Source: Thiothrix unzii (GTDB lineage Bacteria > Pseudomonadota > Gammaproteobacteria > Thiotrichales > Thiotrichaceae). Taken from it: a stretch of DNA of 64,000 nucleotides. The translations under genes were made by a program, and so were the position numbers. Positions 1,802-32,504 of the stretch are shown piece after piece. The stretch covers positions 1,736,001 through 1,800,000 of the forward strand of contig NZ_CP072793.1 of NCBI RefSeq assembly GCF_017901175.1, in the 5' to 3' direction. The notes beneath the pieces were generated by a model. It worked only from the letters and a program-made list of their open reading frames with translations, was not told the origin of the DNA and ran no database searches. Positions within the stretch are counted from its first letter, which is position 1, and every line of letters starts with the position of its first letter.

Positions 1802-2188
1802 TTACTCGTCACATTCCGCTTTGTATGCGTCTGCATCCATCAATTCGCCCAGCGCGTCTTCGTCATCCACACGCATCACGAACAGCCAGCCGTCGCCGTA
1901 AGGGTCAGAATTGATCAGTTCCGGCGAGTCTTGCACCGCTTCATTGCTCTCGATAATCACACCCGGAACAGGCGCGTAAATATCAGAAGCCGCTTTGACG
2001 GATTCGGCAACCGCACAACCGTCTTCTGCACCGAATTCAGTGCCAACTTCTGGTAAATCAACGTGTACCAAGTCACCCAGCAATTCTTGCGCATGGTCAG
2101 TAATCCCGACGGTAACAGTGCCGTCGCCGTTGTCGCGTACCCACTCGTGGGATTTGGTGTATTTCAAATCGGATGGAACATTGCTCAT
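1802..2188 (-). CDS. gcvH: Glycine cleavage system H protein
   Basis: GcvH is the small lipoylated shuttle protein that carries the aminomethyl group from GcvP to GcvT and is then reoxidised by lipoamide dehydrogenase. The 128-residue length is normal for the family. The lipoylation motif ESVKAASD puts the modified lysine at about K65. The N-terminus ([10 protein letters not shown]) and the C-terminal GDGWLFVMR are typical. The start at 2188 follows TTAGGAG with good spacing. It lies 17 bp after gcvT and upstream of gcvP in one minus-strand operon under the glycine riboswitch. The C-terminus is acidic, as is usual. Confidence 0.98.
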
Positions 2189-2205
2189 AAATAACTCCTA
2201 AAAAC

Positions 2206-3288
2206 TTAATTTAAAACAGATTTGCCATTGCGTGCGAAAACCGGCTTCACCACTTTTGCCGGGTGCAATTTGCCGCGAATATCCACCTCACAGGTGTCGC
2301 CACAGCTTGCTGGCACGCGTGCCAACGCAATCGCTACGCCGAGTGTAGGCGAAAAAGTACCACTGGTGGTTTCGCCTTCACCGCCTTCACAAATAACTTT
2401 CATGTGGCTGCGCAATACGCCCTTGCCTTCCAGCACCAACCCAACGAACTTTTGCGGAATACCGGCAGCTTTCTGTGCTTCCAACGCGCTGCGCCCAATA
2501 AAGTTACGGTCTTCCGGCTGCCAACCGATTGTCCAACCCAAACCCGACACTAATGGTGAAGTGGTTTCGTCCATGTCCGTGCCATAAAGGTTCATGCCCG
2601 CTTCCAAACGCAAGGTATCGCGTGCGCCCAAACCGATCGGCTTGATGCCAGCAGCCAGCAGCGCATCCCACACTTTGTGGGCTTGTGCATTGGGGAACAT
2701 CATTTCAAAGCCGTCTTCGCCAGTGTAGCCGGTGCGGGCAATGAACCAGTCGTTGACGAATGCGCCGTAGAACGTTTTCAGTGGTTCAACGATGGCGACT
2801 TCATCCGCAGGCATAATGCCCAGCACTTTAGCGCGTGCATTCGGGCCTTGTGCCGCGATCATGGAAAGGTCGTCACGTTCGGTCAGGGTTGCGTCGAAAT
2901 TGGCGATTTGTTTTTGCATCCACGCAATGTCTTTGTCGCGAGTGCCTGCGTTAACGACGATGCGCCATTGGGTGTCGGTGATGAAATACACGATCAAATC
3001 GTCAATCACCGTGCCTTCGGGGGTCAACATGCAGCTATACAACGCTTTGCCGGATTCTTTCAGCTTATCAACGTTATTGGCGAGCAGGTAGTGCAAAAAG
3101 GCTTTGGATTGCGCCCCCACGAGGTCGAGGATGACCATGTGCGACACGTCAAACATGCCCGCGTCATTGCGGACTTGGTGGTGTTCTTGCAGTTGTGAGC
3201 CGTAGTGAATGGGCATTTCCCAGCCCGCGAAATCGACCATCTTCGCACCGGATTCAAGGTGCTTGGCGTAAAGTGCAGTACGTTGCAT
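2206..3288 (-). CDS. gcvT: Glycine cleavage system T protein (aminomethyltransferase)
   Basis: GcvT transfers the one-carbon unit from aminomethyl-lipoyl-GcvH to tetrahydrofolate, giving 5,10-methylene-THF and ammonia. The 360-residue protein has the family N-terminus ([24 protein letters not shown], seen in part), the folate-binding region with FDVSHM, and the conserved YTGEDGFE and [11 protein letters not shown] segments. It is the first gene of gcvT-gcvH-gcvP. Its leader holds a tandem glycine riboswitch followed by a terminator that ends 26 bp before the start codon, so expression is probably switched on by glycine. Confidence 0.98.
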
Positions 3289-3808: not shown

Positions 3809-4321
3809 ATGTGTCAGGGCAAACCTAGCAAGCTGCGTGATACAGCCGTCCTGTTCGTCACTTTAATGCTGTTTTGGCTAATGCTAAGCGGCAAACTGGA
3901 CACTGATGTCCTCATCGTCGGCGCAGTCGCATCATTGATCATCGCTCTGCTCTACCGCGATGGTCTGTCGTTCTTCACCGAATTCCGTTTTACCCCGCAA
4001 GCGATTGTGGCGGGCTTCCGCTACTACGGCTACTTCTTGCAGGAGCTGTTTAAGTCCAACCTGAAAATGGCTGCCATTGTGTTATCGCCCTCACTCCCGA
4101 TTACGCCGGGTATCGTTAAAGTGCGCACCCGGCTCAAAAGTCGCATGGGGCGGTTGATGCTGGCGAATTCCATTACGCTGACACCGGGAACGCTGACGGT
4201 CGAGATGGCTGGTGAATGGCTGTACATACACTGCGTCACCGTGGGTGCAACGGATATTGAGGCAGCCACGGCGGAAATTGTCAGCGGGTTCGAGTCTTAC
4301 CTTGAGGTGATGTATGGTTGA
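3809..4321 (+). CDS. mrpE: MrpE/MnhE-type antiporter subunit (MbxA-like)
   Basis: This 170-residue membrane protein matches the MnhE family: two N-terminal hydrophobic helices (LFVTLMLFWLMLSG and VLIVGAVASLIIALLY), then a cytoplasmic domain with LANSITLTPGTLTV, the family signature. It opens the 13-gene Mbx/Mrp operon; in archaeal mbx/mbh operons the MnhE homologue is likewise the first subunit. A ribosome site (AACGGAG) precedes the ATG. Its stop overlaps the start of the next gene by 8 bp. In Mrp-type complexes this subunit is structural and belongs to the Na+/H+ antiporter module. Confidence 0.93.
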   Translation: MCQGKPSKLRDTAVLFVTLMLFWLMLSGKLDTDVLIVGAVASLIIALLYRDGLSFFTEFRFTPQAIVAGFRYYGYFLQELFKSNLKMAAIVLSPSLPITPGIVKVRTRLKSRMGRLMLANSITLTPGTLTVEMAGEWLYIHCVTVGATDIEAATAEIVSGFESYLEVMYG

Positions 4322-4574
4322 GGTGTTGATTGCCATTGCCGGAACGCTTGCCGGGCTGGCATTCCTACTGGCACTGGCGCGGTTTGTGCGCGGGCCATCG
4401 CGGGTAGACCGGGTGGTTGCGTTTGATGTGCTGACGGTAATTGCGATTACCTTCATCGTGCTGGTGGCCTTGGTGGAAAACCGGGGAATTTATCTGGATG
4501 CGGCGTTGGTCTACGCGCTGTTGTCATTCCTGGGGGTAATCGCCATTGCCCGCTATCTGGAGGGCAGGTTCTGA
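4314..4574 (+). CDS. mrpF: MrpF/MnhF-type antiporter subunit (MbxB-like)
   Basis: The 86-residue protein has three transmembrane helices and the MnhF signature RGPSRVDRVVAFDVL followed by an acidic NRGIYLDAALVYALLSFLG stretch. It overlaps mrpE by 8 bp and touches mrpG (its TGA shares the A of the next ATG). It is a small structural subunit of the cation/proton antiporter module of the complex. Confidence 0.93.
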   Translation: MVEVLIAIAGTLAGLAFLLALARFVRGPSRVDRVVAFDVLTVIAITFIVLVALVENRGIYLDAALVYALLSFLGVIAIARYLEGRF

Positions 4575-4912
4575 TGGGACTGCTAATCGACATTATCGGT
4601 GGTTTGCTGCTGGTCAGTGGCGCGGCATTTCTGCTGTTTGGCAGCCTGGGGCTGCTGCGGATGCCGGACGTTTTCAACCGCATTCAGGCAGGCACGAAAG
4701 CCACTACGCTGGGAACCTTGTTAACCCTTGCCGGAGCAGCTTGTTTGCAACCCGGATGGGGCTGGAAACTGTTGCTGATTGGGGTATTCCTGATTTTCAC
4801 CAACCCGGTTTCCTCTCAGGTGTTGGCAAACACTGCCCACCGACGCGGGGCGCAGAAAACCCCATTGACCAAGATTGACCAGTTGGCAGAAGACCAAGAG
4901 GGCAAAGCATGA
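4574..4912 (+). CDS. mrpG: MrpG/MnhG-type antiporter subunit (MbxC-like)
   Basis: The 112-residue protein matches MnhG: a first helix IIGGLLLVSGAAFLLFGSLGLLRMPDVFNRIQAG (seen in part), the conserved RMPDVFNRIQA motif, then two more helices. The C-terminal tail is polar and charged. It overlaps the next gene by 4 bp (ATGA), consistent with translational coupling through the whole operon. Confidence 0.93.
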   Translation: MGLLIDIIGGLLLVSGAAFLLFGSLGLLRMPDVFNRIQAGTKATTLGTLLTLAGAACLQPGWGWKLLLIGVFLIFTNPVSSQVLANTAHRRGAQKTPLTKIDQLAEDQEGKA

Positions 4913-5160
4913 ATACCGTATTACTGGGCATCGGCGTATTGCTGGCGGTTGCCATGATTGGCGTGGCATGGCTAACGATTCGTGCCACCCGGATTGCCAC
5001 CGCGATGTTGGCGGCGGGGCTGGTGAGCCTGTTTGCGTCGGTGCTGTTCCTGTTTCTCGCTGCCCCTGATGTGGCAATGACCGAAGCGGCGATTGGCAGC
5101 GGCTTGACCACTTTCCTGTTTTTCTTTGTGCTAGGGCGCGTGCGCGGAGGTCAGTCATGA
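4909..5160 (+). CDS. DUF4040/MbhD-like subunit
   Basis: This 83-residue three-helix protein has the MbhD signature AAPDVAMTEAAIGSGLTTFL, which corresponds to part of the C-terminal extension of MrpA. In MbhD/MrpA-type subunits this helix pair is thought to belong to the ion translocation path. It overlaps its neighbours on both sides by 4 bp. As a free-standing small subunit it matches the archaeal Mbh/Mbx arrangement rather than bacterial Mrp, where it is part of MrpA. Confidence 0.9.
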   Translation: MNTVLLGIGVLLAVAMIGVAWLTIRATRIATAMLAAGLVSLFASVLFLFLAAPDVAMTEAAIGSGLTTFLFFFVLGRVRGGQS

Positions 5161-5855
5161 TCCGACGTTTTGCGGTTTTCCTGCTGTTGCTGGGCTTGGG
5201 GGCAATCTTTGCCGACCTGTTGCTGGGCTATACGCCAAGCGAGGAACTCAACCTGACAGCACGTTACTACGCGGAACACACCGCGCAGGATTTGGGTGCT
5301 GCCAATATCGTCACCGCGATTGTGGTCACTTACCGGGGTCTGGATACGTTGGGTGAAGTCACGGTGCTGTTTTTGACCGCCACCATTATTGGCATGGTGT
5401 TGGCGCGTGGACGTAAACACCGCGCATTGCAACGTCAGTTACCGGCGGCAGGGGAATTGCTGACCACGGGTAGCCGCCTGTTAGTGCCGCTGATTTTATT
5501 GCTGGGCGTGTATGTGTTTGTCAACGGGCATCTGACTCCCGGCGGTGGTTTTCAGGGCGGGGCAATTGTGGCATCGGCGGCGTTGCTGTTGTTACTGACG
5601 GATCCGTTGAAACGCTTTAGTCACCGCCTGATCGCGGTCATGGAAGCGGTATCCGGGCTGTTTTTCATCGGGCTGGGCGTACTGGGGCTGGTGTATGCAG
5701 GCGGTTTCCTCGATAGCAGGGTGCTGCCCAACGGGGCGTTCGGCACACTGTTTTCGGCGGGTGTCATGCCCATCATTTACAGCTTTATCGGCCTCAAGGT
5801 CGGGGCTGAATTCACTTCCATGCTGACCCATCTGGCAGAAACGGAGCAATCATAA
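5157..5855 (+). CDS. MbhE-like segment fused to MrpB/MnhB-type subunit
   Basis: The 232-residue membrane protein has two parts. Residues 1-90 contain a first helix and DLGAANIVTAIVVTYRGLDT, the MbhE/MrpA C-terminal signature. Residues ~100-232 match MnhB, with VNGHLTPGGGFQGGAIVASA. In Mbh these are usually separate E and F subunits, so this is a fusion. It overlaps the MbhD-like gene by 4 bp and abuts the next gene by one base (TAATG). It is part of the antiporter-type module of the complex. Confidence 0.88.
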   Translation: MIRRFAVFLLLLGLGAIFADLLLGYTPSEELNLTARYYAEHTAQDLGAANIVTAIVVTYRGLDTLGEVTVLFLTATIIGMVLARGRKHRALQRQLPAAGELLTTGSRLLVPLILLLGVYVFVNGHLTPGGGFQGGAIVASAALLLLLTDPLKRFSHRLIAVMEAVSGLFFIGLGVLGLVYAGGFLDSRVLPNGAFGTLFSAGVMPIIYSFIGLKVGAEFTSMLTHLAETEQS

Positions 5856-6211
5856 TGGACTGGATCGCAATGGCAACAGGCTTCATCCTCATCCTGATGG
5901 GGCTGTATGGCGCACTCACCAACCGCAATATCCTGCGGATCATTGTCTCGTTCAGCGTCGCCAATACCGGCGTGAATCTGGTGCTGGTGGCGGTGGGGTA
6001 TATGCGCGGGCGTACTGCACCGATTCTGGATGAAGCCGTACCGATGGCGGATGCTGTCACCCGCATTATTGACCCCTTGCCGCAAGCGTTGGTGCTGACC
6101 GCCATCGTGATTGGGCTGGGGGTAACAGCCTTGATGCTGACGTATGCCTACAAGTTGTACGAAGAAAAAGGCACGCTCGATATTTCCAAATGCAGGGATT
6201 TGAAATGGTAA
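5855..6211 (+). CDS. mrpC: MrpC/MnhC-type (NuoK-like) subunit
   Basis: The 118-residue protein has three helices and the MnhC/NuoK pattern: GLYGALTNRNILRIIVSFSV, then VLTAIVIGLGVTALMLTYAYKLY. The NuoK family carries buried acidic residues that take part in proton transfer. Here the helix region includes MADAVTRIIDPLPQALVLTAIV, typical of MnhC. The stop at 6211 overlaps the start of the large channel gene. Confidence 0.93.
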   Translation: MDWIAMATGFILILMGLYGALTNRNILRIIVSFSVANTGVNLVLVAVGYMRGRTAPILDEAVPMADAVTRIIDPLPQALVLTAIVIGLGVTALMLTYAYKLYEEKGTLDISKCRDLKW

Positions 6212-9200
6212 GCCCACTCTACATCATTGCCGTCGGGCTGGGGGCAGCGTTCCTGCTCGGTCTGTTGCCGGAAAAATGGCAGCGGGCAGCCTATGGCGTA
6301 ACCCTCCTCGCACTCGCGCTCATGGGCTGGATTGCCGGAAGCTGGCTGTGGGCGTTTGCGCTGCAAGGGGCGGTGCCGGTTGAAATCTTCACCGCTGGGA
6401 CACAACCACCGTTTGCGATCAATTTCCGGGTCGGGCTGGCGGAAGCGTCACTGGCATTGCTAATGGCGTTGACGGGCTTGCACGCCGCACTGTACATGCG
6501 CGATACCCTGTTCAAGCAGGGGCGGCGGGCAATGGCGGTGCTGCTGATTTTCGTGATGGCCACCTGCGGGGTGATTTTCACTCGTGACCTGTTCAACCTG
6601 TTTGTATTCATGGAACTGGTGGTGATTTCTACCGGTGGGCTGGTGCTGCTGTCAGCAGATCGGCGGGCATTGGGGGCTGGTTTGAAATACCTGATTGTGT
6701 CGCAACTGGTGTCCATCCTGATGCTGGTGGGGATGGTATTTGCCTACCATGCCACTGGCACACTCAACATCGACGGCATGGCAGCGGCGCAAGCTGACCT
6801 ATTCAAAGGCGGGGCGTTGGCGTTTTTCCTGATGTTGATGGCGGTGCTGGCAGAGTTGAAACCCTTTCCTGCCAACGGTTGGGGGCTGGACATTTATGAA
6901 TCGGCACACCCTGCATTTGCGGCACTGTTTTCAGCAGCAACCGGGGCGGCAACTGTGTATGCGGCGGACAAACTGTTGCTGATTGGCGGGGCACAGTGGT
7001 TGCCACTGGCAAGTGCCATCGGGATTGTGACCTTTGTGGTTGCCAATATTTTTGCCTTGGTGCAAGACAATGACCGGCGGTTGCTGGGCTATTCCTCGAT
7101 AGCACAGGTGGGGCTGATCTTGACCGTGATTGGGCAGCGCGATTTACTGGGGGAACAGTATTATTTTGTGGCAGGCGGTATTTTGCTGGCTCATGCGGTT
7201 GCCAAAGCGGGCTTATTCTGGCTTTCTGGGTTGGTAGCAGCACGCGGCTTGAGTGATTGGGCTGCGTTGCGTGGGCATCCGGTGCTGGTGTTTGCATTTG
7301 TCACCTTTATTGCGTTGTTGGTGGGTTTGCCGCCCTTCCCCGGCTTTTATGCCAAGTGGGAACTGGCGCACGCGCTGGCAGCAAACGGGCAATTGTGGCT
7401 GTTGGGGCTGATCCTGTTCGGGGCATTGCTGGAAGCAGCGTATTTGTTCCGCTGGTTTGGCTACGTGCTTAAGCGCGAACAGCCGCAAGCGGGATTATTG
7501 CTGCAAGCCATCAAAGAAGATGTTGCCTTGAGTGCAGCGGTGGTCGCGTGGTTATTGGCTTATCTGTGGGGCGAACTTTCCGGGCACGGTAATCTGTTGC
7601 ACGCCATCCCCTTGCTGTTTGCGCTGCTGTTTTTGCCACTGGACTGGCTGCCTGCCAAGCTCAAAAACGGGTTGGCAATTGCTGGGCTGGTCGGCTGGTT
7701 TTACCTGCATTACCCCAGTTACGATGCGCTGCAATTGATTTTTGCAGCGGTAATGTTGCCGGGTGGCGCGATTATTTTGCTGGCAAGTTTCCAGACGCAG
7801 CAACGGCGGGTGGGGTTCTACCCGGCGGCAATGCTGATGTTTGCGGGTCTGGCGATGTTGATTGAAGCCAAAACCTCGTTTGCATTTTTTGCGGCGTGGG
7901 AATTGCTGACGGTGGGTTCGTACTTCCTGATTCTGCGCGGCAAGCATTCTGAACCGCACGCGCTGTCGTACATTGTGTTCTCGCTGGGCGGGGCATTCCT
8001 GATGCTGGCGGGGTTTGCACTGGCGGCGCAAGGTGTGCCGGACTTTAAGATCGCGGCCTTGGCACAGGTAGCAGAACCGTTTGCACCGTGGGTATTTGCG
8101 TTGTTGGCGATGGGTTTCATGACCAAAACGGCTGCGGTGGGCGTGCATATTTGGTTGCCCGGCGCACATGCCGAGGCAGAAACCGATGTATCGCCGCTGG
8201 TGTCCGGTATTTTGCTTAAGGCAGGGCTGTTCGGGCTGTTCGTGTTGCTAATGACGATGGGCAAGCAGCAATTGTACGGGGTGGAACTCACCCACGTGAT
8301 GCTGTGGATTGGCGCAATTTCGGCACTGATTGGTAACTTGCTGGCGATTTTCCAGGAAGATGCGAAACGCTTGCTGGCTTATTCTTCCATTGGGCAAATG
8401 GGTTACGCGCTGTTTGGGCTGGCAATGATGAACCATCTGGGCTGGCTGATGGCGTTGATGTTTGTCATTAACCATTACATTTACAAGTCGATGCTGTTCC
8501 TGTCAGTGGGCGGGGTTGCCAAACGTACCGGCACGCGCGATATGTACCGCATGGGCGGGCTGATTACGCTGATGCCGCTGTCGTTCATTGCCACTATGAT
8601 CGGGATTATTGCGGTGTCGGGTGTGCCGCCGCTTTCCGGGTTTGGCGGACGCTGGATTTTCTACAATGCGATTATGACGGCAGAATACCGTTTGCCGATG
8701 GTGATTATTTTCCTCGCAGGGCCGATTGCGTTCCTGTACCTGTTCCGCTTGATTCACACCATTTTCCTAGGGCAGTTGAAAGATGAATTGCGCACCGTGA
8801 AAGAAGCACCGTTCTGGATTGTGTTGCCGCAGATGATTTTTGTGGTTGCCTTATTGGTGTTCGCGCTGATTCCGGGCATGGCGTTGCGGCATGTGGATGC
8901 TTACCTTGCCCCATTCTTTGGTGGGCAGAATGGGCTGGATTGGGCAGGGTTGACCATTACCAGCGAATTCGGTTACTGGAGTCCGGTGTCGATCATGCTG
9001 GTGATCGGGGTGATTTTTGCCACGCTGTTTGCTTGGTTGCTGTTCGTCAACCGCAGGGCGCAGCCGGTGAAGCAGTTCAATATCGTGTTTGCCGGTGAAC
9101 GCCCGTTCCGCCCGGAAACCACCCATTTTGCTTGGAACTTCTTCGCACCGTACCGCAAGGCATTGGGCTTTTTGACCCAGCCGCTGGTCACGATTTTTTG

Positions 9201-9336
9201 GGAAACCCTCACGGAATTGCTGCATTCGGCGGCAGATATTTTACGGCGGATGTATACCGGGAATGGGCAGACTTACGCCATTCACCTGCTCGCCTTTGTG
9301 ATTATCGTCTACCTGTTGTGGATGGGGGGCTTGTGA
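6190..9336 (+). CDS. Fused double MrpD/NuoM-type proton-translocating subunit (MbxH-H' like)
   Basis: This 1,048-residue membrane protein joins two antiporter-like channels end to end. The first unit (about 1-470) has VFMELVVISTGG (helix-5 glutamate), ELKPFPANGWG (helix-7 lysine region) and DNDRRLLGYSSIAQVG. The second (about 510-1000) has FAAWELLTVGS, MTKTAAVGVHIWLPGAHAE and EDAKRLLAYSSIGQMGY. Both keep the charged residues used for proton movement in NuoL/M/N. A NuoM-type subunit is normally ~480-500 residues. Archaeal mbx has two adjacent genes, H and H'; here they are one polypeptide. ATG at 6190 is used, but ATG at 6205 is equally possible because this end overlaps mrpC. Its stop overlaps the next start (ATGA). 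Confidence 0.92.
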   Translation: MQGFEMVSPLYIIAVGLGAAFLLGLLPEKWQRAAYGVTLLALALMGWIAGSWLWAFALQGAVPVEIFTAGTQPPFAINFRVGLAEASLALLMALTGLHAALYMRDTLFKQGRRAMAVLLIFVMATCGVIFTRDLFNLFVFMELVVISTGGLVLLSADRRALGAGLKYLIVSQLVSILMLVGMVFAYHATGTLNIDGMAAAQADLFKGGALAFFLMLMAVLAELKPFPANGWGLDIYESAHPAFAALFSAATGAATVYAADKLLLIGGAQWLPLASAIGIVTFVVANIFALVQDNDRRLLGYSSIAQVGLILTVIGQRDLLGEQYYFVAGGILLAHAVAKAGLFWLSGLVAARGLSDWAALRGHPVLVFAFVTFIALLVGLPPFPGFYAKWELAHALAANGQLWLLGLILFGALLEAAYLFRWFGYVLKREQPQAGLLLQAIKEDVALSAAVVAWLLAYLWGELSGHGNLLHAIPLLFALLFLPLDWLPAKLKNGLAIAGLVGWFYLHYPSYDALQLIFAAVMLPGGAIILLASFQTQQRRVGFYPAAMLMFAGLAMLIEAKTSFAFFAAWELLTVGSYFLILRGKHSEPHALSYIVFSLGGAFLMLAGFALAAQGVPDFKIAALAQVAEPFAPWVFALLAMGFMTKTAAVGVHIWLPGAHAEAETDVSPLVSGILLKAGLFGLFVLLMTMGKQQLYGVELTHVMLWIGAISALIGNLLAIFQEDAKRLLAYSSIGQMGYALFGLAMMNHLGWLMALMFVINHYIYKSMLFLSVGGVAKRTGTRDMYRMGGLITLMPLSFIATMIGIIAVSGVPPLSGFGGRWIFYNAIMTAEYRLPMVIIFLAGPIAFLYLFRLIHTIFLGQLKDELRTVKEAPFWIVLPQMIFVVALLVFALIPGMALRHVDAYLAPFFGGQNGLDWAGLTITSEFGYWSPVSIMLVIGVIFATLFAWLLFVNRRAQPVKQFNIVFAGERPFRPETTHFAWNFFAPYRKALGFLTQPLVTIFWETLTELLHSAADILRRMYTGNGQTYAIHLLAFVIIVYLLWMGGL

Positions 9337-10241
9337 TGGAATTTGAATGGATGAGAATCCCCTGGGCGTTGCTGACATTGTTTATTGTCATCAACTACGG
9401 TTTGCTAATGACGGCTTTGGTGCAAAAAATCGGCGCACGGGTGGGGCGGCGGCATGGTATCCCCATTTGGCAGAATTACATTGATATGCTGAAGAACTAT
9501 GCGCTGCGTACCTCCATTACCCACGGGGTGATGTTCTATCTGGGGCCGGTGTTCCGGCTGTCCGGCGGGGTGGGCTTGTTGCTGTTTGTGCCGAGCATTT
9601 ACGGTTCGGAGATGTTCGCCAACTTTTCGTTTGCAGGCGATTTGATCCTCGCGCTGTATTTTGTGTTCTTTGGCACGCTGGGCATGGCATTGGGCGCGGC
9701 GGAAAGCGGGCATCCTTATTCCGCTATTGGCATTACACGTGGCTTGTCGCAGATGACGGCGGCGGAATTGCCGTTTGCGCTGGCGGTGTTTGCGGTGGCC
9801 TTGCAATACCAGACACTTTCCGTGACCGAAATTGTAGCGGCACAACAAGGTGGGGTGTTGCACTGGACATTGTTTACCAATCCGTTAGCGGTGGCAGCGG
9901 CGATGATGTCGTTCCTCGGTTCGATGATGCGCCCGCCGTTTGACGTGGTACTTGCGCCGCAGGAAATCCCCATTGGCCCGCCGACCGAATACCATTCCTC
10001 GTTTCTGGCGATGATGCAGACCAACCGGGCATTGTTCCCGGTCGCCAAGATCGTGGTGTACATGAACCTGTTCTTTGGCGGGGCAGGAAGCTGGCCGGAA
10101 TTTTTCCTCAAGGTATTCCTGATTTACATGGTGTCGGCGTTTGTCGGGGTGGTATTCCCGCGTTTCCGGGTGGAACAGTCGATCCGCTGGTTTTTAATCT
10201 GGGCAGTGCCGTTGGGCATCCTCGCCGTGGTACTGGTGTAA
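9336..10241 (+). CDS. NuoH-like membrane anchor subunit (MbxM-like)
   Basis: The 301-residue protein belongs to the complex I subunit 1/HyfC/EchB family, which ties the hydrophilic arm to the membrane. Signs are several hydrophobic helices, LGMALGAAESGHPYSAIGITRGL, and RPPFDVVLAPQEIPIGPPTEY, the conserved cytoplasmic loop (each seen in part). I chose the ATG at 9336 that overlaps the preceding TGA, rather than an upstream in-frame ATG inside the previous gene; ATG at 9351 is also possible. It lies 4 bp before the NuoB-like gene. Confidence 0.92.
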   Translation: MEFEWMRIPWALLTLFIVINYGLLMTALVQKIGARVGRRHGIPIWQNYIDMLKNYALRTSITHGVMFYLGPVFRLSGGVGLLLFVPSIYGSEMFANFSFAGDLILALYFVFFGTLGMALGAAESGHPYSAIGITRGLSQMTAAELPFALAVFAVALQYQTLSVTEIVAAQQGGVLHWTLFTNPLAVAAAMMSFLGSMMRPPFDVVLAPQEIPIGPPTEYHSSFLAMMQTNRALFPVAKIVVYMNLFFGGAGSWPEFFLKVFLIYMVSAFVGVVFPRFRVEQSIRWFLIWAVPLGILAVVLV

Positions 10242-10245
10242 TGAC

Positions 10246-10887
10246 ATGAAAGAAGAATTACTCAAACGCATCGTTAAAACGCCGGATGGTCAGGAAATCG
10301 AAATTGACCCGCTGCGCGATTATTACTGCGAAGCAGGCCCCACGGTACAACCGCCTGCTTACACCGCGATTATTGAAAAGCTGTTCAACTGGGCGCGTTC
10401 CGAATCGCTGTGGATTCTGGGCTTTGGCACGGGTTGCGGAGCCATCGAAATGCGCCCGCTAATGACACCGCGTTTCGACGCTTACCGTTATGGCATTCAG
10501 TGGCGGCCTACCCCGCGCCAGTCCAACCTGTTTGTTATTTCTGGCTATTTGTCGGTGAAAACCCTCAAGCGCGTGATCCGCTCCTACGAGCAGATGCAAG
10601 GGCCGAAATACGTGGTGGGGTTAGGGTCTTGCACCATTAACGGCGGCATGTACTGGGATTCCTACAATACCATCAAGCGGCTGGATGATTATTTGCCAGT
10701 GGATGTGTATATCGCGGGCTGTATGCCGCGCCCGGAAGCCTTGCTGGCAGGGTTTGAGGAACTGAAAAAAATCATCCGCGCTGGCAAAGCCGAAGGCGCG
10801 AACCAATACGCCGCCAACTTTGACTGGTACAAAGCCAACCAGAAAAGCGTCATCCACGACTGGGACATGCCGGACTATAACTGGTGA
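10246..10887 (+). CDS. NuoB-like iron-sulfur subunit (MbxJ-like), atypical N2 site
   Basis: The 213-residue protein is homologous to NuoB and the [NiFe]-hydrogenase small subunit, which hold the terminal [4Fe-4S] cluster (N2/proximal). It has FGTGCGAIEMRP, RPTPRQSNLFVISG, GLGSCTINGG and IAGCMPRPEALL. The likely ligands are C64, C129 and C159, with the same spacing as in NuoB. The tandem CC of complex I is C64-G65 here, so the usual second cysteine is missing; C28 is a further cysteine that could contribute. It overlaps the NuoC-like gene by 4 bp. The C-terminal 30 residues are polar. Confidence 0.92.
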   Translation: MKEELLKRIVKTPDGQEIEIDPLRDYYCEAGPTVQPPAYTAIIEKLFNWARSESLWILGFGTGCGAIEMRPLMTPRFDAYRYGIQWRPTPRQSNLFVISGYLSVKTLKRVIRSYEQMQGPKYVVGLGSCTINGGMYWDSYNTIKRLDDYLPVDVYIAGCMPRPEALLAGFEELKKIIRAGKAEGANQYAANFDWYKANQKSVIHDWDMPDYNW

Positions 10888-11429
10888 GCATTATGCAGCA
10901 ACTTTACGACACCCTCACACAACGTTTCTCACTGGGCGAATTCACCCGGCAACGCGCCGACCTCGCCTTTATCACGGTGGAAGCGGTACGCCTGCACGCC
11001 CTGTTACGGCATTTGCGTGATCAGGAAGGTTTCACCCATCTGGTGCTGTTAACGGCAGTGGATTGGCTGGAAGACGGGCAATTTCAGCTCACTTACCTGC
11101 TGAACAATCGCAGCAAGTGTCAGGATTTGGGTTTGCGGGTACTGATTGCCCGCGACAATGCCAGCATGGAAAGCATCCACGACCTGTGGGCAGCCGCAGC
11201 GACCTACCAACGTGAATTGCGCGAAATGTTCGGTATCGACTTCCCCGGTAGCCCACGCCTGATGGACGATTTCATTCTGGAAGGCTGGAACGCCGCCCCA
11301 CCCTACCGCCGTGATTTCGACACCCTCGAATACGCACGCGCCACCTACCGCGAACGCCCAGGGCGCGAAACCCGTGACCCGGCGGCGCACATGAAACAAC
11401 AACTGTACGGGGACAAAGGCGATGTTTGA
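10884..11429 (+). CDS. NuoC-like subunit (MbxK-like)
   Basis: The 181-residue soluble subunit matches the NuoC/30-kDa family: LVLLTAVDWLEDGQFQLTYLLNN, then TYQRELREMFGIDFPGSPRL, the diagnostic EMFGI motif (each seen in part), and a C-terminal RRDFDTLEY. It has no cofactor of its own and helps assemble the NuoD-like subunit. The start at 10884 (GTGAGCATTATGCAG region) overlaps the NuoB-like stop by 4 bp; ATG at 10893 is an alternative start. It overlaps the next gene by 8 bp. Confidence 0.92.
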   Translation: MSIMQQLYDTLTQRFSLGEFTRQRADLAFITVEAVRLHALLRHLRDQEGFTHLVLLTAVDWLEDGQFQLTYLLNNRSKCQDLGLRVLIARDNASMESIHDLWAAAATYQRELREMFGIDFPGSPRLMDDFILEGWNAAPPYRRDFDTLEYARATYRERPGRETRDPAAHMKQQLYGDKGDV

Positions 11430-12594
11430 GTTAGACCGCAGCCAGTACCCGCAGAAAAAAGCCGACGGCACACTGGACATTGACCTCACTTCCGGCAAAT
11501 ACCTGAAACTGTGGCAAGGCCCGCAACACCCCGGCATTACCGGCAATATGGCGATTGAACTGACCGTGTGCGGCGACGAAGTGGTGGACGCCACCACCCA
11601 CGTTGGCTATTTGCATCGCGGCTTTGAAAAGCTGATGGAACGCCGCACTTTCATGCAGTGCTTCCCGATTGTGTGCCGCATTTGCGTCCCCGAACCCGAT
11701 TTCAACGAATACTGCTACGCCGCTGCCGTCGAAGAACTCGCCGGGTTGGAAATCCCCGAACTGGCGCACTGGATTCGTACCCTGATTCTGGAAATGGGGC
11801 GCGTCAACAGCTACCTGATGTACCTCGGCGGGCAAGCCGGTGCCTTCGGGCAAGGCGTGATCGGGCAATGGACAACGTATGTGCGTGACCTGATGCTCGA
11901 CCGCTTCGAGGAACTGACTGGCGCACGTATTTACCACATGTTTATTATCCCCGGCGGAGTGCGCGATAACCTGCCAGACGGGTTTGCGGGGCGCATGGAA
12001 GAAACCTTGCGCGAAATCGAAAGCGTGCTGGCGGATGTGGATCGGGTCATGTTCCACAATGCCGTGTTCAAGAAACGTGCGGTCGGCGTGGGCGTGATTG
12101 ACACCGCATGGTTGGACAGTTACGGCATTACCGGCCCGAATGCCCGCGCTGCCGGAGTCGCCAAAGACGTGCGCAAAGACCAACCTTATCTGGTTTACCC
12201 CGAACTGGAATTTGAGGCGGTGACGGGCAAGGATTCCGACATTTACACCCGTGCGGATGTACGCCGCCGTGACTTGTTACTGTCGCTGGATCTGATCCGG
12301 CAAATCTTGGCGAAAATGCCCAAAACGGGTGCGGTGATGACCAAGTTGCCCAATGTGTTGCACTGGAAAATTCCGCGCGGTGAAACCTATGTCCGTGGCG
12401 AATGTTCACGCGGCGAATACGGTTATTACCTCGTCACCGATGGCAGCGGATACCCGCGCCGGGTGAATGTGCGCGGGCCGTCTTACACGCATTCGATTGC
12501 GCTGTTTGAACGCATGGTCATCAACGCCAATATTTCTGATGTTGCCGCTTTGCTGGTGTCGCTGCACACCTACCCGCCGGAGATCGAACGATGA
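11422..12594 (+). CDS. NuoD-like/hydrogenase large-subunit-like protein without a NiFe site (MbxL-like)
   Basis: The 390-residue subunit is homologous to NuoD and the [NiFe]-hydrogenase large subunit. GPQHPGITGN near residue 33, THVGYLHRGFEKLMERR, and GGVRDNLPDG are family features. One CxxC remains (CRIC, C85-C88), at the place of the N-terminal metal-binding pair of hydrogenases. The C-terminal pair is absent: the protein ends in HTYPPEIER. It should therefore not bind NiFe or make hydrogen. A quinone, polysulfide or other acceptor site is more likely, by analogy with Mbx/Mbs and complex I. It overlaps neighbours by 8 bp and 4 bp. Confidence 0.92.
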   Translation: MFELDRSQYPQKKADGTLDIDLTSGKYLKLWQGPQHPGITGNMAIELTVCGDEVVDATTHVGYLHRGFEKLMERRTFMQCFPIVCRICVPEPDFNEYCYAAAVEELAGLEIPELAHWIRTLILEMGRVNSYLMYLGGQAGAFGQGVIGQWTTYVRDLMLDRFEELTGARIYHMFIIPGGVRDNLPDGFAGRMEETLREIESVLADVDRVMFHNAVFKKRAVGVGVIDTAWLDSYGITGPNARAAGVAKDVRKDQPYLVYPELEFEAVTGKDSDIYTRADVRRRDLLLSLDLIRQILAKMPKTGAVMTKLPNVLHWKIPRGETYVRGECSRGEYGYYLVTDGSGYPRRVNVRGPSYTHSIALFERMVINANISDVAALLVSLHTYPPEIER

Positions 12595-14393
12595 GTATCA
12601 GTGACGTACTGTCCCCGTTTACCGCTTGGAAAAACCTGTTCCGCGACCCGGTAACGATCAAAGACCCGCTCAATGAACGCCCCGGTGCGGCGCGTTATCG
12701 CGGCTTCCACAAGAATGACATGGACAAGTGCATCGGCTGCGGAACCTGCGAAACGATTTGCCAAAACGGTGCTATTGACATGCTGCCGGTGGAAGGCATT
12801 CCGGCGGTGCAAGGTGATTCCGGCTTGCGCCCGCGCATCGACTACGGGCGTTGCTGCTGGTGTGCGCTGTGTGTAGACGTGTGCATGACCGGCTCACTCA
12901 CCATGTCCAATGAATACAAATGGGTAGAAAGCGACCCCGACTTGTTTCGCTTTACCCCCGGCGTGGACAAAAAATATTGGGACAATGCCGAACTCGGCTA
13001 CCAGCGTCATGATGAAAAGCATCTGATGCCCGTGGCACGCGAAGAAATGCCGGAATTGCACCCGGAAGCGCGGCTCGATTCGTTTGTTGAAATCGTTCAC
13101 GGTTACAGCATCGAACAGGCCAGACTGGAAGCCGACCGTTGCGTGTCTTGCGGGCTGTGCATTGCCACCTGCCCGGCGCACATGGCGATTCCCGATTACA
13201 TCAAAGCGGTGCGGGACGGCGATTACGAACGCGGTGTGCAATTGCTGTACGCAACCAACCCGTTTTCGCAAGTGTGCGGGCGGGTGTGTACTCACCGTTG
13301 CGAAGATTCCTGCGCCGCACGGCACGAAGGCGACCCGATTGCCATCCGCTGGCTCAAACGCCACATCATTGATCAAGTACCGCAAGAAAAAGTCATTGAA
13401 TTGATTGGCAAACCGGCAGCACCGACAGGCAAGCAAGTTGCCATTATTGGGGCGGGGCCTGCGGGTCTGACGGCGGCGTTTGATCTTGCTCGTTTGGGTC
13501 ACGCGGTCACGGTTTATGAAGCGCAAGCGGCTGGCGGCGGCATGACGCGCTACGGCATCCCCGAATACCGTTTGCCTTACGACGCGCTGGACAAGGATAT
13601 TGCCGTGATCACCGCGATGGGTGTGGATATCAAGTACAACCAGCGGGTCGGCACGGACATTGCCATGCAGCAACTGCAAAGCGATTATGACGCAGTAGTG
13701 CTGGCAATCGGCTTGCATCAAGGGCGTTCCACCCGCATTCCCGGTTCCGATCATCCGCAAGTACGCAAAGCGGTTGACCTGTTGCGCCAGATTACCGCTG
13801 GCGAAACCATTGACGTACCTAAATCCCTAGTCGTGATTGGCGGCGGCAACGTGGCGATGGACATTGCCCGCAGCATGGCACGCCTGCAATTGCAGCAATA
13901 CGGCGAAATCCGTGTGACCCTGACCGCATTGGAAGACAAAGCGCATTTCCTCGCCGATCCGGTGGAAATCAAGGAATCGCTGGAAGAGCAAATCAACATC
14001 CTCGACAGCCGTGGCCCACAAGCCTGCGTGATCGACGACAACGGCAAACTGCTTGGGCTAAAAACCTGGAAAGTCTTGTCGATATTCGATGCAGAACGCC
14101 GCTTCGCCCCAAAATACGACCCGGCAGACGAGCAACTCCACGAAGGTGAAATGATCGTCGAAGCCATCGGTCAAATGGCTGATGTCAGCCTGCTGGGTGA
14201 CGCACTCACCGAACGGCTGGAATGGAACCGTGGACGCATCCAGATTGACCCGAACGGACGCACTTCAGAAAGCTGGTTATGGTCAGCAGGTGATTGCGTC
14301 AAAGGCCCCGATGTCATCAACGCCGTTGCCGACGGACACCGTGTCGCCACCAGCATCCACCGCGCCCTTACCCCACAGGAGGCAACCGCATGA
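12591..14393 (+). CDS. NuoI-like ferredoxin fused to GltD/NfnL-like NAD(P)H flavoprotein
   Basis: This 600-residue fusion has three parts. Residues 1-110 are NuoI/MbxN-like with two [4Fe-4S] motifs (C47-C50-C53-C57 and C88-C91-C94-C98). Residues ~170-260 are the GltD-type iron-sulfur domain (C184-C187-C190-C194, then CGRVCTHRCEDSC, C229-C241). Residues ~280-600 are a two-dinucleotide flavoprotein: FAD site GAGPAGLTAA (287-296), NAD(P) site IGGGNVAMDIAR (416-427), and AGDCVKGPD with ADGHRVA at the C-terminus. The flavoprotein part resembles GltD and the NfnL/B subunit of NADH-dependent ferredoxin:NADP oxidoreductase. It would feed electrons from NAD(P)H, or return them, directly through four clusters to the NuoB-like subunit. 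Its stop overlaps the rubrerythrin start (ATGA). Confidence 0.93.
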   Translation: MSISDVLSPFTAWKNLFRDPVTIKDPLNERPGAARYRGFHKNDMDKCIGCGTCETICQNGAIDMLPVEGIPAVQGDSGLRPRIDYGRCCWCALCVDVCMTGSLTMSNEYKWVESDPDLFRFTPGVDKKYWDNAELGYQRHDEKHLMPVAREEMPELHPEARLDSFVEIVHGYSIEQARLEADRCVSCGLCIATCPAHMAIPDYIKAVRDGDYERGVQLLYATNPFSQVCGRVCTHRCEDSCAARHEGDPIAIRWLKRHIIDQVPQEKVIELIGKPAAPTGKQVAIIGAGPAGLTAAFDLARLGHAVTVYEAQAAGGGMTRYGIPEYRLPYDALDKDIAVITAMGVDIKYNQRVGTDIAMQQLQSDYDAVVLAIGLHQGRSTRIPGSDHPQVRKAVDLLRQITAGETIDVPKSLVVIGGGNVAMDIARSMARLQLQQYGEIRVTLTALEDKAHFLADPVEIKESLEEQINILDSRGPQACVIDDNGKLLGLKTWKVLSIFDAERRFAPKYDPADEQLHEGEMIVEAIGQMADVSLLGDALTERLEWNRGRIQIDPNGRTSESWLWSAGDCVKGPDVINAVADGHRVATSIHRALTPQEATA

Positions 14394-14884
14394 GCGAAGC
14401 CAGCATCCAACGGCTGCAAAGCAAAACCACCCTCAAGGAAATCCTAGCAGTGGCGACCGAGTTTGAACGCACTGCCCGAGATTTTTACACCGACCTGATC
14501 CCCAAGGTACACAAAAGTATCCGCTATCTGGTGGAAGAACTCGCGGCGGAGGAACAAGGCCATTACGACCTGTTTACCCAAATGGCAGCGCGTGACGATC
14601 TGGAACAGCAACTCAAAGCCGAAGTGGAACGGCCTGCCAGTGACCACAAGTTTTCCGACTGCATCCACCTGCCCGACCTTGGCGAACAGCCGGACGATCA
14701 GGCAGTGTTACAATATGCCTTGCGGCGCGAACACGCGGCGATGGAGCAATACCACGCCTTGGCGCAAGGCACGGAAGCGGGGCCGATTCACGACCTGTTC
14801 CTGTACCTTGCGAATGAAGAAACCAAGCATAAAAATGAGCTGGAGAAGTTGTACTACGCGACGGTGCATAGTGGTGGGGTTTGA
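14390..14884 (+). CDS. Rubrerythrin/ferritin-like di-iron protein
   Basis: The 164-residue four-helix protein has the di-iron ligand pattern of rubrerythrin-like ferritins: EFERTARDFY (helix 1 Glu), EELAAEEQGHYDLF (ExxH), RREHAAMEQY, and ANEETKHKNELE (ExxH). There is no C-terminal rubredoxin domain. The start at 14390 was chosen because it follows ACAGGAGG and overlaps the previous stop by 4 bp; the frame extends further upstream but only inside the preceding gene. Co-translation with the redox complex suggests peroxide or oxygen protection of its iron-sulfur clusters, which is inference. Confidence 0.88.
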   Translation: MSEASIQRLQSKTTLKEILAVATEFERTARDFYTDLIPKVHKSIRYLVEELAAEEQGHYDLFTQMAARDDLEQQLKAEVERPASDHKFSDCIHLPDLGEQPDDQAVLQYALRREHAAMEQYHALAQGTEAGPIHDLFLYLANEETKHKNELEKLYYATVHSGGV

Positions 14885-26056: not shown

Positions 26057-27379
26057 ATGACCACTATCGACGAAAAACACAATGCCAGCGTCCCCGCCGG
26101 ACGCTTTGCCCGCATGGCACGCCTCGGCTCACTCGCCACGGGTGTCGCAGGTGGCATGATCGCCGAAGGTGCACGGCAGCTTGCGCAAGGTAATCGTCCC
26201 AAAGTCAGCGATCTGCTGCTGACTCCCGCCAATGCCAAGCGCGTTGCCGACGAGTTGGCGCGTTTACGCGGGGCTGCGATGAAAGTTGGGCAACTGCTGT
26301 CGATGGACGCGGGTGATATGTTGCCCGCCGAACTCACCGAGATTCTTTCGCGACTGCGCTCCGCTGCCAAACCCATGCCCTTGAGCCAATTGGCAAAAGT
26401 GCTGGATGACAACTGGGGCAAAGGCTGGAACACACGTTTTCAACAATTTTCGTTCCAACCCTTAGCGGCAGCTTCGATTGGGCAAGTGCATTCGGCGCAC
26501 ACTAAAGACGGGCGGCATCTCGCGCTGAAAATACAGTACCCCGGCGTGCGCGAAAGCATCAGCAGTGATGTGGATAATGTCGCGGCATTACTGCGGATTT
26601 CGGGGCTAATTCCCAAAGGCATCGACTACCAACCGCTGCTCGAAGAAGCCAAACAGCAATTGCACCAAGAAGCCGATTACTTGCAGGAAGCGGCATATAT
26701 CCGCCGTTACCAAGAGCTATTGGCGGATAGCCCCGAATTTGCGTTGACCGCTGTGCATGATGATTTCACCACGGTGAACATTCTGGCAATGACGCACATT
26801 GGCGGCGTGCCGATTGAATCGCTGGCACACGCGCCGCAGGAAGAACGTGATCGCGTAATGCACTTACTGCTGGGTTTATTATTCCGCGAAATTTTCAGCT
26901 TCCGGTTGGTGCAGACCGACCCGAATTTCGCCAATTACCGCTATGATCGTGAAGCGCAGCAACTGATTTTGCTGGACTTTGGCGCAACACGGGAATACCC
27001 CGAATCCATTGCGGAAGGCTATCGGCAAGTGATGCAAGGCGCAGTGCAACGGGATCGTACCATGATGGATGCGGGTGCTGCGCAAATTGGTTTCTTTCAA
27101 GCCTTCATCAAGCCGGAACAGCGGGCAGCAGTGCTGGATTTGTTTGAGCAGGCGTGCGAGCCGTTGCGTTGGAAAGGCGTGTATGACTTTGGCACATCGA
27201 GTTTGGCAAGCCGGATTCGTGACGCGGGCATGGCGTTGAGCATGGAGCAGGATTATTGGCATACACCGCCTGCGGATGCGTTGTTTTTACATCGCAAGCT
27301 AGGCGGGTTGTATTTGCTGTCGGCGAAACTGCGGGCGCGGGTGGATGTCGGCGGGTTGTTTGCGCAATACGCGCTATAG
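26057..27379 (+). CDS. AarF/ABC1/UbiB-family kinase-like protein
   Basis: The 440-residue protein has the features of the ABC1 atypical kinase family: the KxGQ motif (AAMKVGQLLSMD, near 76), the Ala-rich loop (PLAAASIGQVHSA) in place of a glycine-rich loop, the VAIK-like lysine (LALKIQYPGV), the catalytic-loop-like VQTDPNFANYR and the metal-binding LLDFGATREY. UbiB relatives act as ATPases in ubiquinone synthesis; this shorter version without obvious C-terminal membrane helices is closer to other ABC1 paralogues, so the exact role is open. Its 3' end overlaps hsdR (convergent) by 6 bp. Confidence 0.9.
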   Translation: MTTIDEKHNASVPAGRFARMARLGSLATGVAGGMIAEGARQLAQGNRPKVSDLLLTPANAKRVADELARLRGAAMKVGQLLSMDAGDMLPAELTEILSRLRSAAKPMPLSQLAKVLDDNWGKGWNTRFQQFSFQPLAAASIGQVHSAHTKDGRHLALKIQYPGVRESISSDVDNVAALLRISGLIPKGIDYQPLLEEAKQQLHQEADYLQEAAYIRRYQELLADSPEFALTAVHDDFTTVNILAMTHIGGVPIESLAHAPQEERDRVMHLLLGLLFREIFSFRLVQTDPNFANYRYDREAQQLILLDFGATREYPESIAEGYRQVMQGAVQRDRTMMDAGAAQIGFFQAFIKPEQRAAVLDLFEQACEPLRWKGVYDFGTSSLASRIRDAGMALSMEQDYWHTPPADALFLHRKLGGLYLLSAKLRARVDVGGLFAQYAL

Positions 27380-29824: not shown

Positions 29825-29930
29825 GGATTAGCCTTGTTTTTGCGCCAATATCGCGCAAGATGGCTTGAATAGTAGCATTATCAGCCTTTCTTATCATGGT
29901 TTTGTGTCAGTTCGGTGGTTGAATTGACTA

Positions 29931-29996
29931 CTTCACTCCGAACATTCCCCCCATCCCCAGCCCTTCCCCCGCAAGGGGTGAAGGGTGCAAGAAGGC
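29931..29996. repeat. Solo diverged copy of the 68-bp DUF559-unit terminal repeat
   Basis: This segment, in the gap between hsdR and the small gene upstream, matches the left repeat at 31929-31996 over nearly its full length (shared CATCCCCAGCCCTTCCCCCG and CAAGGGGTGAAGGG), with a handful of substitutions. It has no DUF559 gene beside it. The rest of 29825-30034 shows nothing else. Confidence 0.85.
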
Positions 29997-30034
29997 AGTA
30001 GATTGCGTTTATTGTGGATGCGGATGGTTAGCTG

Positions 30035-30523: not shown

Positions 30524-30554
30524 AAACGCTCCTGTGCTGCTCAAAAATTCAAGG

Positions 30555-31844: not shown

Positions 31845-31928
31845 CGTCGTTGCTCCCGTTTAGCATCATCCGTTGGCGGGCGCGGGCGGAAGAAACGTAT
31901 CGACATAAGTTTGAGGGAGTATTCACCA

Positions 31929-31996
31929 CCTCACTCCGAACGCTCCCCCATCCCCAGCCCTTCCCCCGCAAGGGGTGAAGGGGGCAAGAGGTGCTG
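31929..31996. repeat. Left 68-bp terminal inverted repeat of the DUF559 unit
   Basis: Starts CCTCACTCCGAACGCT and ends CAAGAGGTGCTG; exact reverse complement of 32400-32467. Non-coding here, lying 84 bp upstream of the hsdS start on the other strand. Confidence 0.95.
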
Positions 31997-32045
31997 TCTA
32001 TCGGTGAATGTTGCGTAACAAGGCGAGGTTGCTGACACTGGCAGA

Positions 32046-32467: not shown

Positions 32468-32504
32468 CAGCGAATATAGCCATCAAACTCATGAATATTC
32501 CTCA

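What the first reader, a model, noticed from the sequence alone, without database searches (positions are those of the whole stretch)
3809..14884. Mbx-like ion-pumping complex with an NfnL/GltD-type NAD(P)H module fused to its ferredoxin subunit
Thirteen overlapping genes follow the subunit order I recall for the archaeal mbx/mbs operon (A-B-C-D-F-G-H-H'-M-J-K-L-N), with three fusions: MbhE+MrpB, H+H' (1,048 residues), and NuoI-like + GltD/NfnL-like flavoprotein (600 residues). In Pyrococcus furiosus Mbs takes electrons from ferredoxin and reduces sulfane sulfur. Here the flavoprotein offers a direct NAD(P)H entry or exit, so the complex could be an NAD(P)H-dependent, ion-coupled polysulfide or quinone reductase, or run in reverse to make NAD(P)H. 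In a sulfur oxidiser this would matter. I recall a GltD-like gene near an mbx-type operon in Thermotoga, but not this fusion.
Basis: partly seen in the sequence, partly recalled or inferred. Interest (0 to 1): 0.88.

Follow-up and report, generated by a model that had tools for sequence, protein, structure and literature searches.

The report
Ion pump with built-in NADH module
A sulfur-oxidising bacterium (Thiothrix) carries a gene cluster for a complex I-like, ion-pumping enzyme that probably passes electrons between NADH and sulfur-sulfur bonds; relatives occur in many sulfur bacteria, but no paper we found describes how they work.

Summary
Window 3809-14393 holds 12 packed genes for an MBS/MBX-type complex (sulfane-sulfur reductase relative of complex I) with MbhE+MrpB, H+H' and NuoI+Fer4_20+pyridine-nucleotide-flavoprotein fusions; a 13th gene (14390-14884) encodes a rubrerythrin-like protein, conserved beside the flavoprotein. 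The host is a Thiothrix. Trees put the NuoD-like subunit with Pyrococcus MbsL, not with hydrogenases or complex I. The three-cysteine catalytic cluster of MBS is kept; both quinone residues of complex I are absent. The flavoprotein lacks the NADPH-binding YRR motif (A-L-E instead), so NADH is predicted, and has the StnC-type lysine ligand, which suggests a linear, non-bifurcating wire.

The fusion itself is not new: NCBI model PRK13984 spans it, Thermotoga maritima rings that model, and 80 fused relatives were fetched. New here, as far as I searched: the NADH prediction, the rubrerythrin partner, exchange of the NAD half between two MBS-like engines, and a close link to dsrA (13 of 13 and 6 of 6 carriers in two genome draws, both holding the own genome; twelve of 50 named carriers lack it). 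Best reading: reversible, ion-coupled NADH:sulfane-sulfur oxidoreductase. Direction and activity are untested.

The parts
3809..4321 (+). MrpE-like subunit (A)
   Evidence: PF01899 1.1e-37
4314..4574 (+). MrpF-like subunit (B)
   Evidence: PF04066 2.3e-18
4574..4912 (+). MrpG-like subunit (C)
   Evidence: PF03334 2.8e-24
4909..5160 (+). MbhD-like subunit (D)
   Evidence: PF13244 1.7e-16
5157..5855 (+). MbhE + MrpB fusion (E/F)
   Evidence: PF20501 4.6e-9 and PF04039 2.5e-22 in one 232-aa frame
5855..6211 (+). MrpC/NuoK-like subunit (G)
   Evidence: PF00420 1.1e-23
6190..9336 (+). Fused antiporter-like pumps H + H' (1048 aa)
   Evidence: two PF00361 stretches; charged residues E142, E222, H335, K389 and E571, K646, K677, H762, R821 by alignment with E. 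coli NuoL/M/N; H1 and H2 in one frame in 45 of 65 testable relatives
9336..10241 (+). NuoH-like membrane anchor (M)
   Evidence: PF00146 4.9e-44
10246..10887 (+). NuoB/MbsJ-like subunit (J), three-Cys proximal [4Fe-4S] site, about 40-aa N-terminal extension with an extra Cys
   Evidence: PF01058; 6u8y_J 224 bits, next best 132; MbsJ C28, C93, C123 kept and C25 replaced by Gly
10884..11429 (+). NuoC-like subunit (K)
   Evidence: PF00329 2.1e-25
11422..12594 (+). NuoD/MbsL-like subunit (L)
   Evidence: 6u8y_L 327 bits, Nqo4 205, MbhL 141, FHL 101; tree; H38 to T and Y87 to V
12591..14393 (+). Fused NuoI-like (about aa 1-150) + Fer4_20 (aa 163-266) + FAD/NAD(H) flavoprotein (aa 282-580)
   Evidence: Pfam; NF010590 887 bits over positions 7-609 of 611, cut-off 946; fold match to NfnL, StnC, GltD
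14390..14884 (+). Rubrerythrin-like diiron protein, overlaps the flavoprotein stop by 4 nt
   Evidence: PF02915 1.3e-10; downstream of the flavoprotein in 68 of 75 loci with room

Best explanation
A reversible, ion-coupled NADH:sulfane-sulfur oxidoreductase of the MBS/MBX type. NADH is oxidised (or NAD+ reduced) at the FAD of the C-terminal flavoprotein domain. Single electrons pass through two [4Fe-4S] clusters of the Fer4_20 part and two of the NuoI-like part to the three-cysteine proximal cluster between J and L. There an S-S bond (polysulfide, persulfide or sulfur drawn from stored globules) is cleaved or formed. The redox step is coupled through L and M to the antiporter-like subunits H, H' and the Mrp-type subunits. 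Shown by sequence: gene order, fusions, kinship of L and J to MBS, cluster ligands, loss of the quinone residues, loss of the NADPH motif, pump residues. Inferred: sulfur as substrate, NADH as cofactor, continuous wire, coupling, direction. I think it works near equilibrium: in anoxia or darkness NADH disposes of electrons on stored sulfur; with sulfide present and a high ion gradient it can push electrons back onto NAD+.
For: L and J are closest to MBS; L in a tree with MbsL at 100/99, hydrogenases apart at 100/100. The MBS three-Cys ligand set is kept; MBS's proximal cluster is the site shown to be catalytic (PMC7684303 section 10). Quinone residues absent in 54 of 54 aligned clade I rows (3 of 57 gapped) and 21 of 21 clade II rows. 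YRR replaced, E448 in 36 of 37; DsrL enzymes without YRR prefer NAD(H), the one tested with it uses NADP(H) (PMC7596348 passages). Lys256 invariant in 37 of 37, aligned with StnC K170 (alignment), whose FAD is non-bifurcating (PMC10482914 passages). dsrA in 6 of 6 and 13 of 13 carriers of two genome draws, own genome in both. T. maritima mbxA rises 4.36-fold with S0 (PMC9431562 passages). The Riftia symbiont's putative Mrp-Mbx genes share network neighbours with the rTCA cycle and not the CBB cycle (PMC11636981 passages).
Against: I found no measured activity for a bacterial member. NADH gives little driving force for polysulfide (recalled potentials about -320 and -260 mV), so pumping per NADH would be small. 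Of 50 named carriers, 12 lack dsrA: nine Rhodobacterales, one gammaproteobacterial MAG (L030), Delongbacteria and Neomarinimicrobiota; three of these (L079, L082, L094) lack soxB too. The AF2 model of the NuoI part is poor (pLDDT under 50 for aa 1-42), so the wire was not measured. L066 has R-K in place of L-E, so cofactor use may vary. Clade I also lost MbsL C385 and MbsJ C25 (both dispensable in MBS), so its site is not identical to that of MBS.
Confidence: 0.55

Rival explanations
1. Ion-pumping ferredoxin:NAD(+) oxidoreductase (Rnf-like job). The NuoI-like part docks ferredoxin, the flavoprotein takes the electrons to NAD+, and the proximal cluster only gates the pump or confurcates.
For: Pyrococcus MBS takes electrons from ferredoxin (PMC7684303). 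PMC6349859 cites Pyrococcus Mbx as a ferredoxin:NADP+ oxidoreductase (passage). Co-expression with the ferredoxin-dependent rTCA cycle in the Riftia symbiont.
Against: The three-Cys proximal site and the loss of quinone residues are kept as in MBS, which this job does not need. The flavoprotein is fused to the subunit where ferredoxin would dock. Carriers track dsrA.
Confidence: 0.2
2. NADH:quinone oxidoreductase, an alternative complex I with a GltD-type input module.
For: Complex I-like architecture, NuoH-like subunit and pump residues.
Against: Nqo4 H38 and Y87 are T and V; the own genome's ordinary NuoD keeps H and Y. The proximal cluster lacks the tandem Cys of complex I (complex I motif from PMC7684303). 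L does not group with complex I.
Confidence: 0.08
3. Uphill use only: ion-motive force drives electrons from sulfide, persulfide or DsrC-type carriers onto NAD+ to supply autotrophy.
For: NAD(H)-type motif as in DsrL-1 of sulfur oxidisers, for which NAD+ is a suitable acceptor (PMC7596348 passages). dsrA in 13 of 13 and 6 of 6 carriers. A small potential gap makes the reverse cheap (recalled values).
Against: Direction cannot be read from sequence. Thermotoga maritima, an anaerobic heterotroph that rings the same fusion model, raises mbxA with S0. The Riftia Mrp-Mbx genes pair with rTCA, not with the CBB/sulfide-oxidation set.
Confidence: 0.15

Closest known systems
MBS, sulfane sulfur reductase of Pyrococcus furiosus (PDB 6u8y; the name is recalled, chain residues C25 and C28 agree with PMC7684303)
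   Same: Subunit set with H and H', L and J closest in sequence, three-Cys proximal cluster, no quinone residues, TMH7 Glu in H (E222 here, E219 in MbsH)
   Different: Electron input fused on (predicted NADH flavoprotein instead of free ferredoxin), H+H' and MbhE+MrpB fused, MbsJ C25 and MbsL C385 lost, extra Cys-bearing N-terminus on J, rubrerythrin-like partner
MBX of Thermotoga maritima and NCBIfam PRK13984/NF010590
   Same: Same full-length NuoI + flavoprotein model; T. maritima scores over the model's cut-off; PMC9431562 describes a 13-subunit MBX there (passages)
   Different: Our protein scores 887 bits, below the curated 946; I did not see the T. maritima sequence, nor that its fused gene lies in the mbx operon
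Putative Mrp-Mbx of the Riftia symbiont (PMC11636981)
   Same: Gammaproteobacterial sulfur oxidiser; symbionts of related tubeworms (L072, L073, L076) carry clade II operons with the same kind of flavoprotein and rubrerythrin gene
   Different: Clade II engine, only 43-48% identical in L to the window; the passages of that paper that I saw mention no fusion
StnC of the Stn transhydrogenase
   Same: GltD-type FAD module that feeds a Nuo-like Fe-S chain linearly, with a Lys cluster ligand
   Different: StnC uses NADPH and feeds a separate bifurcating module
DsrL-1 of sulfur oxidisers
   Same: NfnL-related flavoprotein without YRR, prefers NAD(H), in dsr bacteria
   Different: Partner of DsrAB with a C-terminal ferredoxin domain; no pump

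Membership tests
MBS/MBX (Mrp-type energy-converting complexes without NiFe) | NuoD-like subunit groups with MbsL, apart from hydrogenases and complex I | tested here: met
   100/99 with MbsL and the bacterial relatives; MbhL, HycE, HyfG apart at 100/100. Bootstrap had not fully settled and MbsL is a long branch, so its exact place within the group is unsure
MBS/MBX (Mrp-type energy-converting complexes without NiFe) | Proximal cluster with three Cys ligands | tested here: met
   for relatives
MBS/MBX (Mrp-type energy-converting complexes without NiFe) | Mrp-type subunits plus two pump subunits H and H' | tested here: met
MBS/MBX (Mrp-type energy-converting complexes without NiFe) | Reduces sulfane sulfur | not testable with these tools
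   needs enzyme assay
MBS/MBX (Mrp-type energy-converting complexes without NiFe) | Ferredoxin as electron donor | not testable with these tools
   flavoprotein fused at that subunit; docking not modelled
Respiratory complex I | Quinone head-group His and Tyr in NuoD | tested here: not met
   T and V
Group 4 [NiFe] hydrogenase | Four Cys ligands of NiFe in the large subunit | tested here: not met
   only the MbsL C85 position is Cys, C385 is Tyr; the other two positions read by eye from the printouts are not Cys
NfnL / bifurcating Nfn | YRR motif for the NADPH phosphate | tested here: not met
   A-L-E
NfnL / bifurcating Nfn | NfnS partner encoded alongside | tested here: not met
   no such gene among the 13 genes; flank genes recur only among close kin in the fetched loci
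NCBIfam PRK13984 (putative oxidoreductase) | Score over the curated cut-off of 946 bits | tested here: not met
   887 bits, positions 7-609 of 611: same architecture, below the naming threshold

The most novel reading that the evidence does not exclude
The complex works as an ion-gradient-driven sulfide/persulfide:NAD+ oxidoreductase that lets Dsr-type sulfur bacteria make NADH straight from sulfane-sulfur chemistry without the quinone pool, and runs the other way as the missing enzyme for respiration of stored sulfur in anoxia; the rubrerythrin-like protein shields the open iron site of the proximal cluster from oxygen or peroxide, fed by the same flavoprotein.
Probability: 0.2. Interest if true: 0.85.

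Novelty: new variant of a known kind. Interest (0 to 1): 0.57.

Why it matters
Beggiatoa reduces stored sulfur in anoxia (PMC4959497, passages seen; they name no enzyme for it), and purple sulfur bacteria are said to do so in the dark (recalled). If this complex does it, a knockout in a cultured carrier would test it. It would also give a bacterial, NADH-linked version of MBS, which is a key step in current accounts of complex I evolution, in free-living and symbiotic sulfur bacteria. The natural exchange of the NAD half between two engines, and the L066 variant, offer built-in tests of which part sets cofactor use.

Tried and rejected
Unique fusion: rejected, NF010590 spans it and T. maritima rings it. 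Hydrogenase or ordinary complex I: rejected by tree and residues. NADPH as cofactor: disfavoured. Cys229 as a special fourth cluster ligand: dropped, E. coli GltD has it too. Wire distances from an AF2 model: not usable, low confidence in the NuoI part. Flank genes as functional clue: nothing beyond the cassette recurs outside close kin. Literature for the fusion: search listings and passages gave no description of it; the library lacks most subscription journals. One search stopped on a script error. One search ranked hits by E-value by mistake, so its operon and rubrerythrin counts are void and replaced (its count of the N-terminal Cys of J does not use that ranking). After a recheck, G344 (L018), one of the six carriers of the Pseudomonadota draw, proved to have its NuoI and flavoprotein parts in two different frames; it is still counted because L, N, flavoprotein and rubrerythrin parts lie side by side.
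Full report
What is there. The window lies in a 3.7 Mb genome (G000) of a Thiothrix: the fused protein is 98% identical over 600 residues to that of T. caldifontis (L019). From 3809 to 14393, 12 genes on the + strand encode MrpE, MrpF, MrpG, MbhD, MbhE+MrpB, MrpC, two fused antiporter-like pumps, NuoH-, NuoB-, NuoC- and NuoD-like subunits and a 600-residue NuoI + Fer4_20 + pyridine-nucleotide flavoprotein. A rubrerythrin-like gene overlaps the last stop codon by 4 nt. The genome also has an ordinary NuoD elsewhere.

Not a one-off. NCBI model NF010590 (PRK13984, 'putative oxidoreductase') aligns to the fused protein over positions 7-609 of 611 with 887 bits, under its cut-off of 946; of 14 control genomes only Thermotoga maritima rings it, over the cut-off. 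The best 80 were kept. In all 80 the NuoI and flavoprotein parts share one frame, but they were ranked by match to the full protein, so this is no independent count. Carriers of the model: 10 of 57 relatives, 6 of 398 Pseudomonadota (one, G344, with the two parts in different frames), 13 of 274 of the class (all matches from position 4-10 to 605-609), 27 of 77 of the family of Thiohalocapsa marina (two of them partial matches). The neighbourhood of the carriers was not looked at, save G050 and the own genome.

The engine. Against the PDB chains the NuoD-like protein scores 327 bits with MbsL, 205 with Nqo4, 141 with MbhL and 101 with E. coli FHL; the NuoB-like protein 224 bits with MbsJ and 132 with the next best. 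In a tree with MbhL, HycE, HyfG, Nqo4, E. coli and Thiothrix NuoD, the NuoD-like protein falls with MbsL and the other bacterial members at 100/99. The bootstrap had not settled and MbsL is a long branch. MbsJ ligands C28, C93 and C123 are kept, and the non-ligand C25 is Gly (roles from PMC7684303 section 10). Complex I H38 and Y87 are T and V in 54 of 54 aligned clade I rows (3 of 57 gapped) and E and V in 21 of 21 clade II rows; MbsL C385 is Tyr in 56 of 57 clade I rows and Cys in 21 of 21 clade II rows. All 46 clade I NuoB-like proteins with enough upstream sequence share a Cys in an N-terminal extension absent from MbsJ; its role is unknown. Pump residues are largely in place, with the MbsH-type Glu in TMH7 (MbsH residues from PMC7684303 passages); the TMH12 Lys of H' is Arg.

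The NADH module. The best fold matches are NfnL, Nfn/StnC and GltD chains (model pLDDT 76.5, poor in the first 42 residues). The eight Cys of the NuoI-like part (two CxxCxxCxxxC sets) and those of the Fer4_20 part are invariant in 37 of 37 rows. Lys256, invariant, aligns with K170 of StnC (numbering counted on the printout), where NfnB has a Glu; StnC's FAD does not bifurcate (PMC10482914 passages). The YRR motif of NfnL, GltD and NfnA is A-L-E here, with Glu448 in 36 of 37 rows; L066 has R-K. In DsrL enzymes, absence of YRR goes with NAD(H) and presence with NADP(H), measured on three proteins (PMC7596348 passages). So I predict NADH and a linear wire. This is inference.

Two engines, one module. 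By identity of the NuoD-like subunit to the window the relatives fall in clade I (57 loci; Thiothrix, Sedimenticola, Chromatiaceae, Rhodobacterales, Gallionellaceae and others, with Delongbacteria and Neomarinimicrobiota) and clade II (21 loci; tubeworm and lucinid symbionts and others; L 43-48% identical); two loci lack L. In trees of 37 members, the FAD/NAD half (residues 301-600) of clade II lies in one set with six gammaproteobacterial clade I members (95/85), and clade II is not one group there; for residues 128-600 the same set has 100/98. The NuoD-like tree rejects that grouping (AU p = 5e-5; the group was named from the other tree). The NuoI and Fer4_20 parts alone do not reject it (p = 0.37 and 0.11), so the break point is not fixed. 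Identity along the protein fits a switch near residue 300. The rubrerythrin tree also mixes the clades (quick tree, no bootstrap). I read this as recombination that moves the NAD half, and the rubrerythrin gene, between two MBS-like engines.

Rubrerythrin-like gene. It follows the flavoprotein within 1.5 kb in 68 of 75 loci with at least 700 bases of room, within 250 bases in 67 of these; two loci have it upstream of the operon and in five none was found. Two of the 68 are weak matches (L092, L094). It is also next to the flavoprotein in all 15 unnamed-genome loci L004-L018, own genome included; in L018 it is in frame with the flavoprotein. The putative iron ligands E55, H58, E144 and H147 are kept in 68-69 of 69 rows. 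NCBIfam knows a GltD-ferritin fusion (PRK12775). Protection of an oxygen-sensitive cluster, or a peroxidase fed by the flavoprotein, is a guess.

Link to sulfur oxidation. dsrA is present in 6 of 6 carriers against 47 of 392 non-carriers in the Pseudomonadota draw (Fisher p = 4e-6; 5 of 5 without the own genome, p = 3e-5). soxB: 3 of 6 against 57 of 392 (p = 0.05). In the class draw dsrA is in 13 of 13 carriers (12 over the cut-off) and in 92 of 274 genomes in all; the own genome is in both draws. Of 50 carriers chosen from the 80 loci, 38 have dsrA (36 over the cut-off); the 12 without are nine Rhodobacterales, one gammaproteobacterial MAG, a Delongbacteria and a Neomarinimicrobiota MAG; nine of these 12 have soxB matches (8 over the cut-off), three have neither. 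Some are incomplete MAGs, and related genomes are not independent, so the p-values overstate. dsrA alone does not tell oxidative from reductive use. Within the genus 9 of 16 genomes carry the operon, and 0 of 20 family members outside it, so it is an optional trait.

How it most likely works, and what is known. NADH to FAD to four [4Fe-4S] clusters to a three-Cys cluster that cleaves S-S bonds, coupled to ion pumping; reversible because the potentials are close (recalled values). Experimental support exists only for relatives: Pyrococcus MBS (ferredoxin to polysulfide), mbxA induction by S0 in T. maritima, co-expression of the Riftia symbiont's putative Mrp-Mbx with the rTCA cycle. Papers were seen as passages (PMC9431562, PMC7684303 with its section 10, PMC6085437, PMC3534657, PMC11636981 with its outline and abstract, PMC6349859, PMC3368242, PMC4959497, PMC10482914, PMC7596348, PMC6405883), none in full. 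Nothing I found describes the fusion's function; subscription papers, including the main MBX reviews I recall, were not available, so prior discussion of the Thermotoga fusion is possible.

Noticed in passing
window 10246-10887, first 40 residues: NuoB-like subunits of clade I carry an N-terminal extension with a Cys ([DE]Y[YF]C), 46 of 46 rows with enough sequence, absent from MbsJ; possible sulfur carrier or fourth cluster ligand.
   Followed up: partly
L066:10001-11770: A Siculibacillus MAG member has R-K where the other 36 rows have L-E (one M-E) at the NAD phosphate site: a possible natural switch towards NADP(H).
   Followed up: no
L018:1180-3290, - strand: In this clade II operon the NuoI part and the flavoprotein lie in two frames, and the flavoprotein frame runs on into the rubrerythrin-like protein; sequencing error or a real flavoprotein-rubrerythrin fusion.
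   Followed up: partly
window 19486-21663: 725-aa frame without any Pfam family at 1e-8.
   Followed up: no
window 27374-33971: Type I restriction-modification genes hsdR, hsdS, hsdM by Pfam, with a predicted AAA-ATPase-like protein at 36748-38445.
   Followed up: no
window 34473-36152: 559-aa frame next to the restriction-modification genes with no Pfam match at 1e-8.
   Followed up: no
window 1802-3288, - strand: The operon is divergent from two frames that look like glycine cleavage H and T proteins (read by eye); the T protein was found in the fetched flank of L019 and L020 only.
   Followed up: partly
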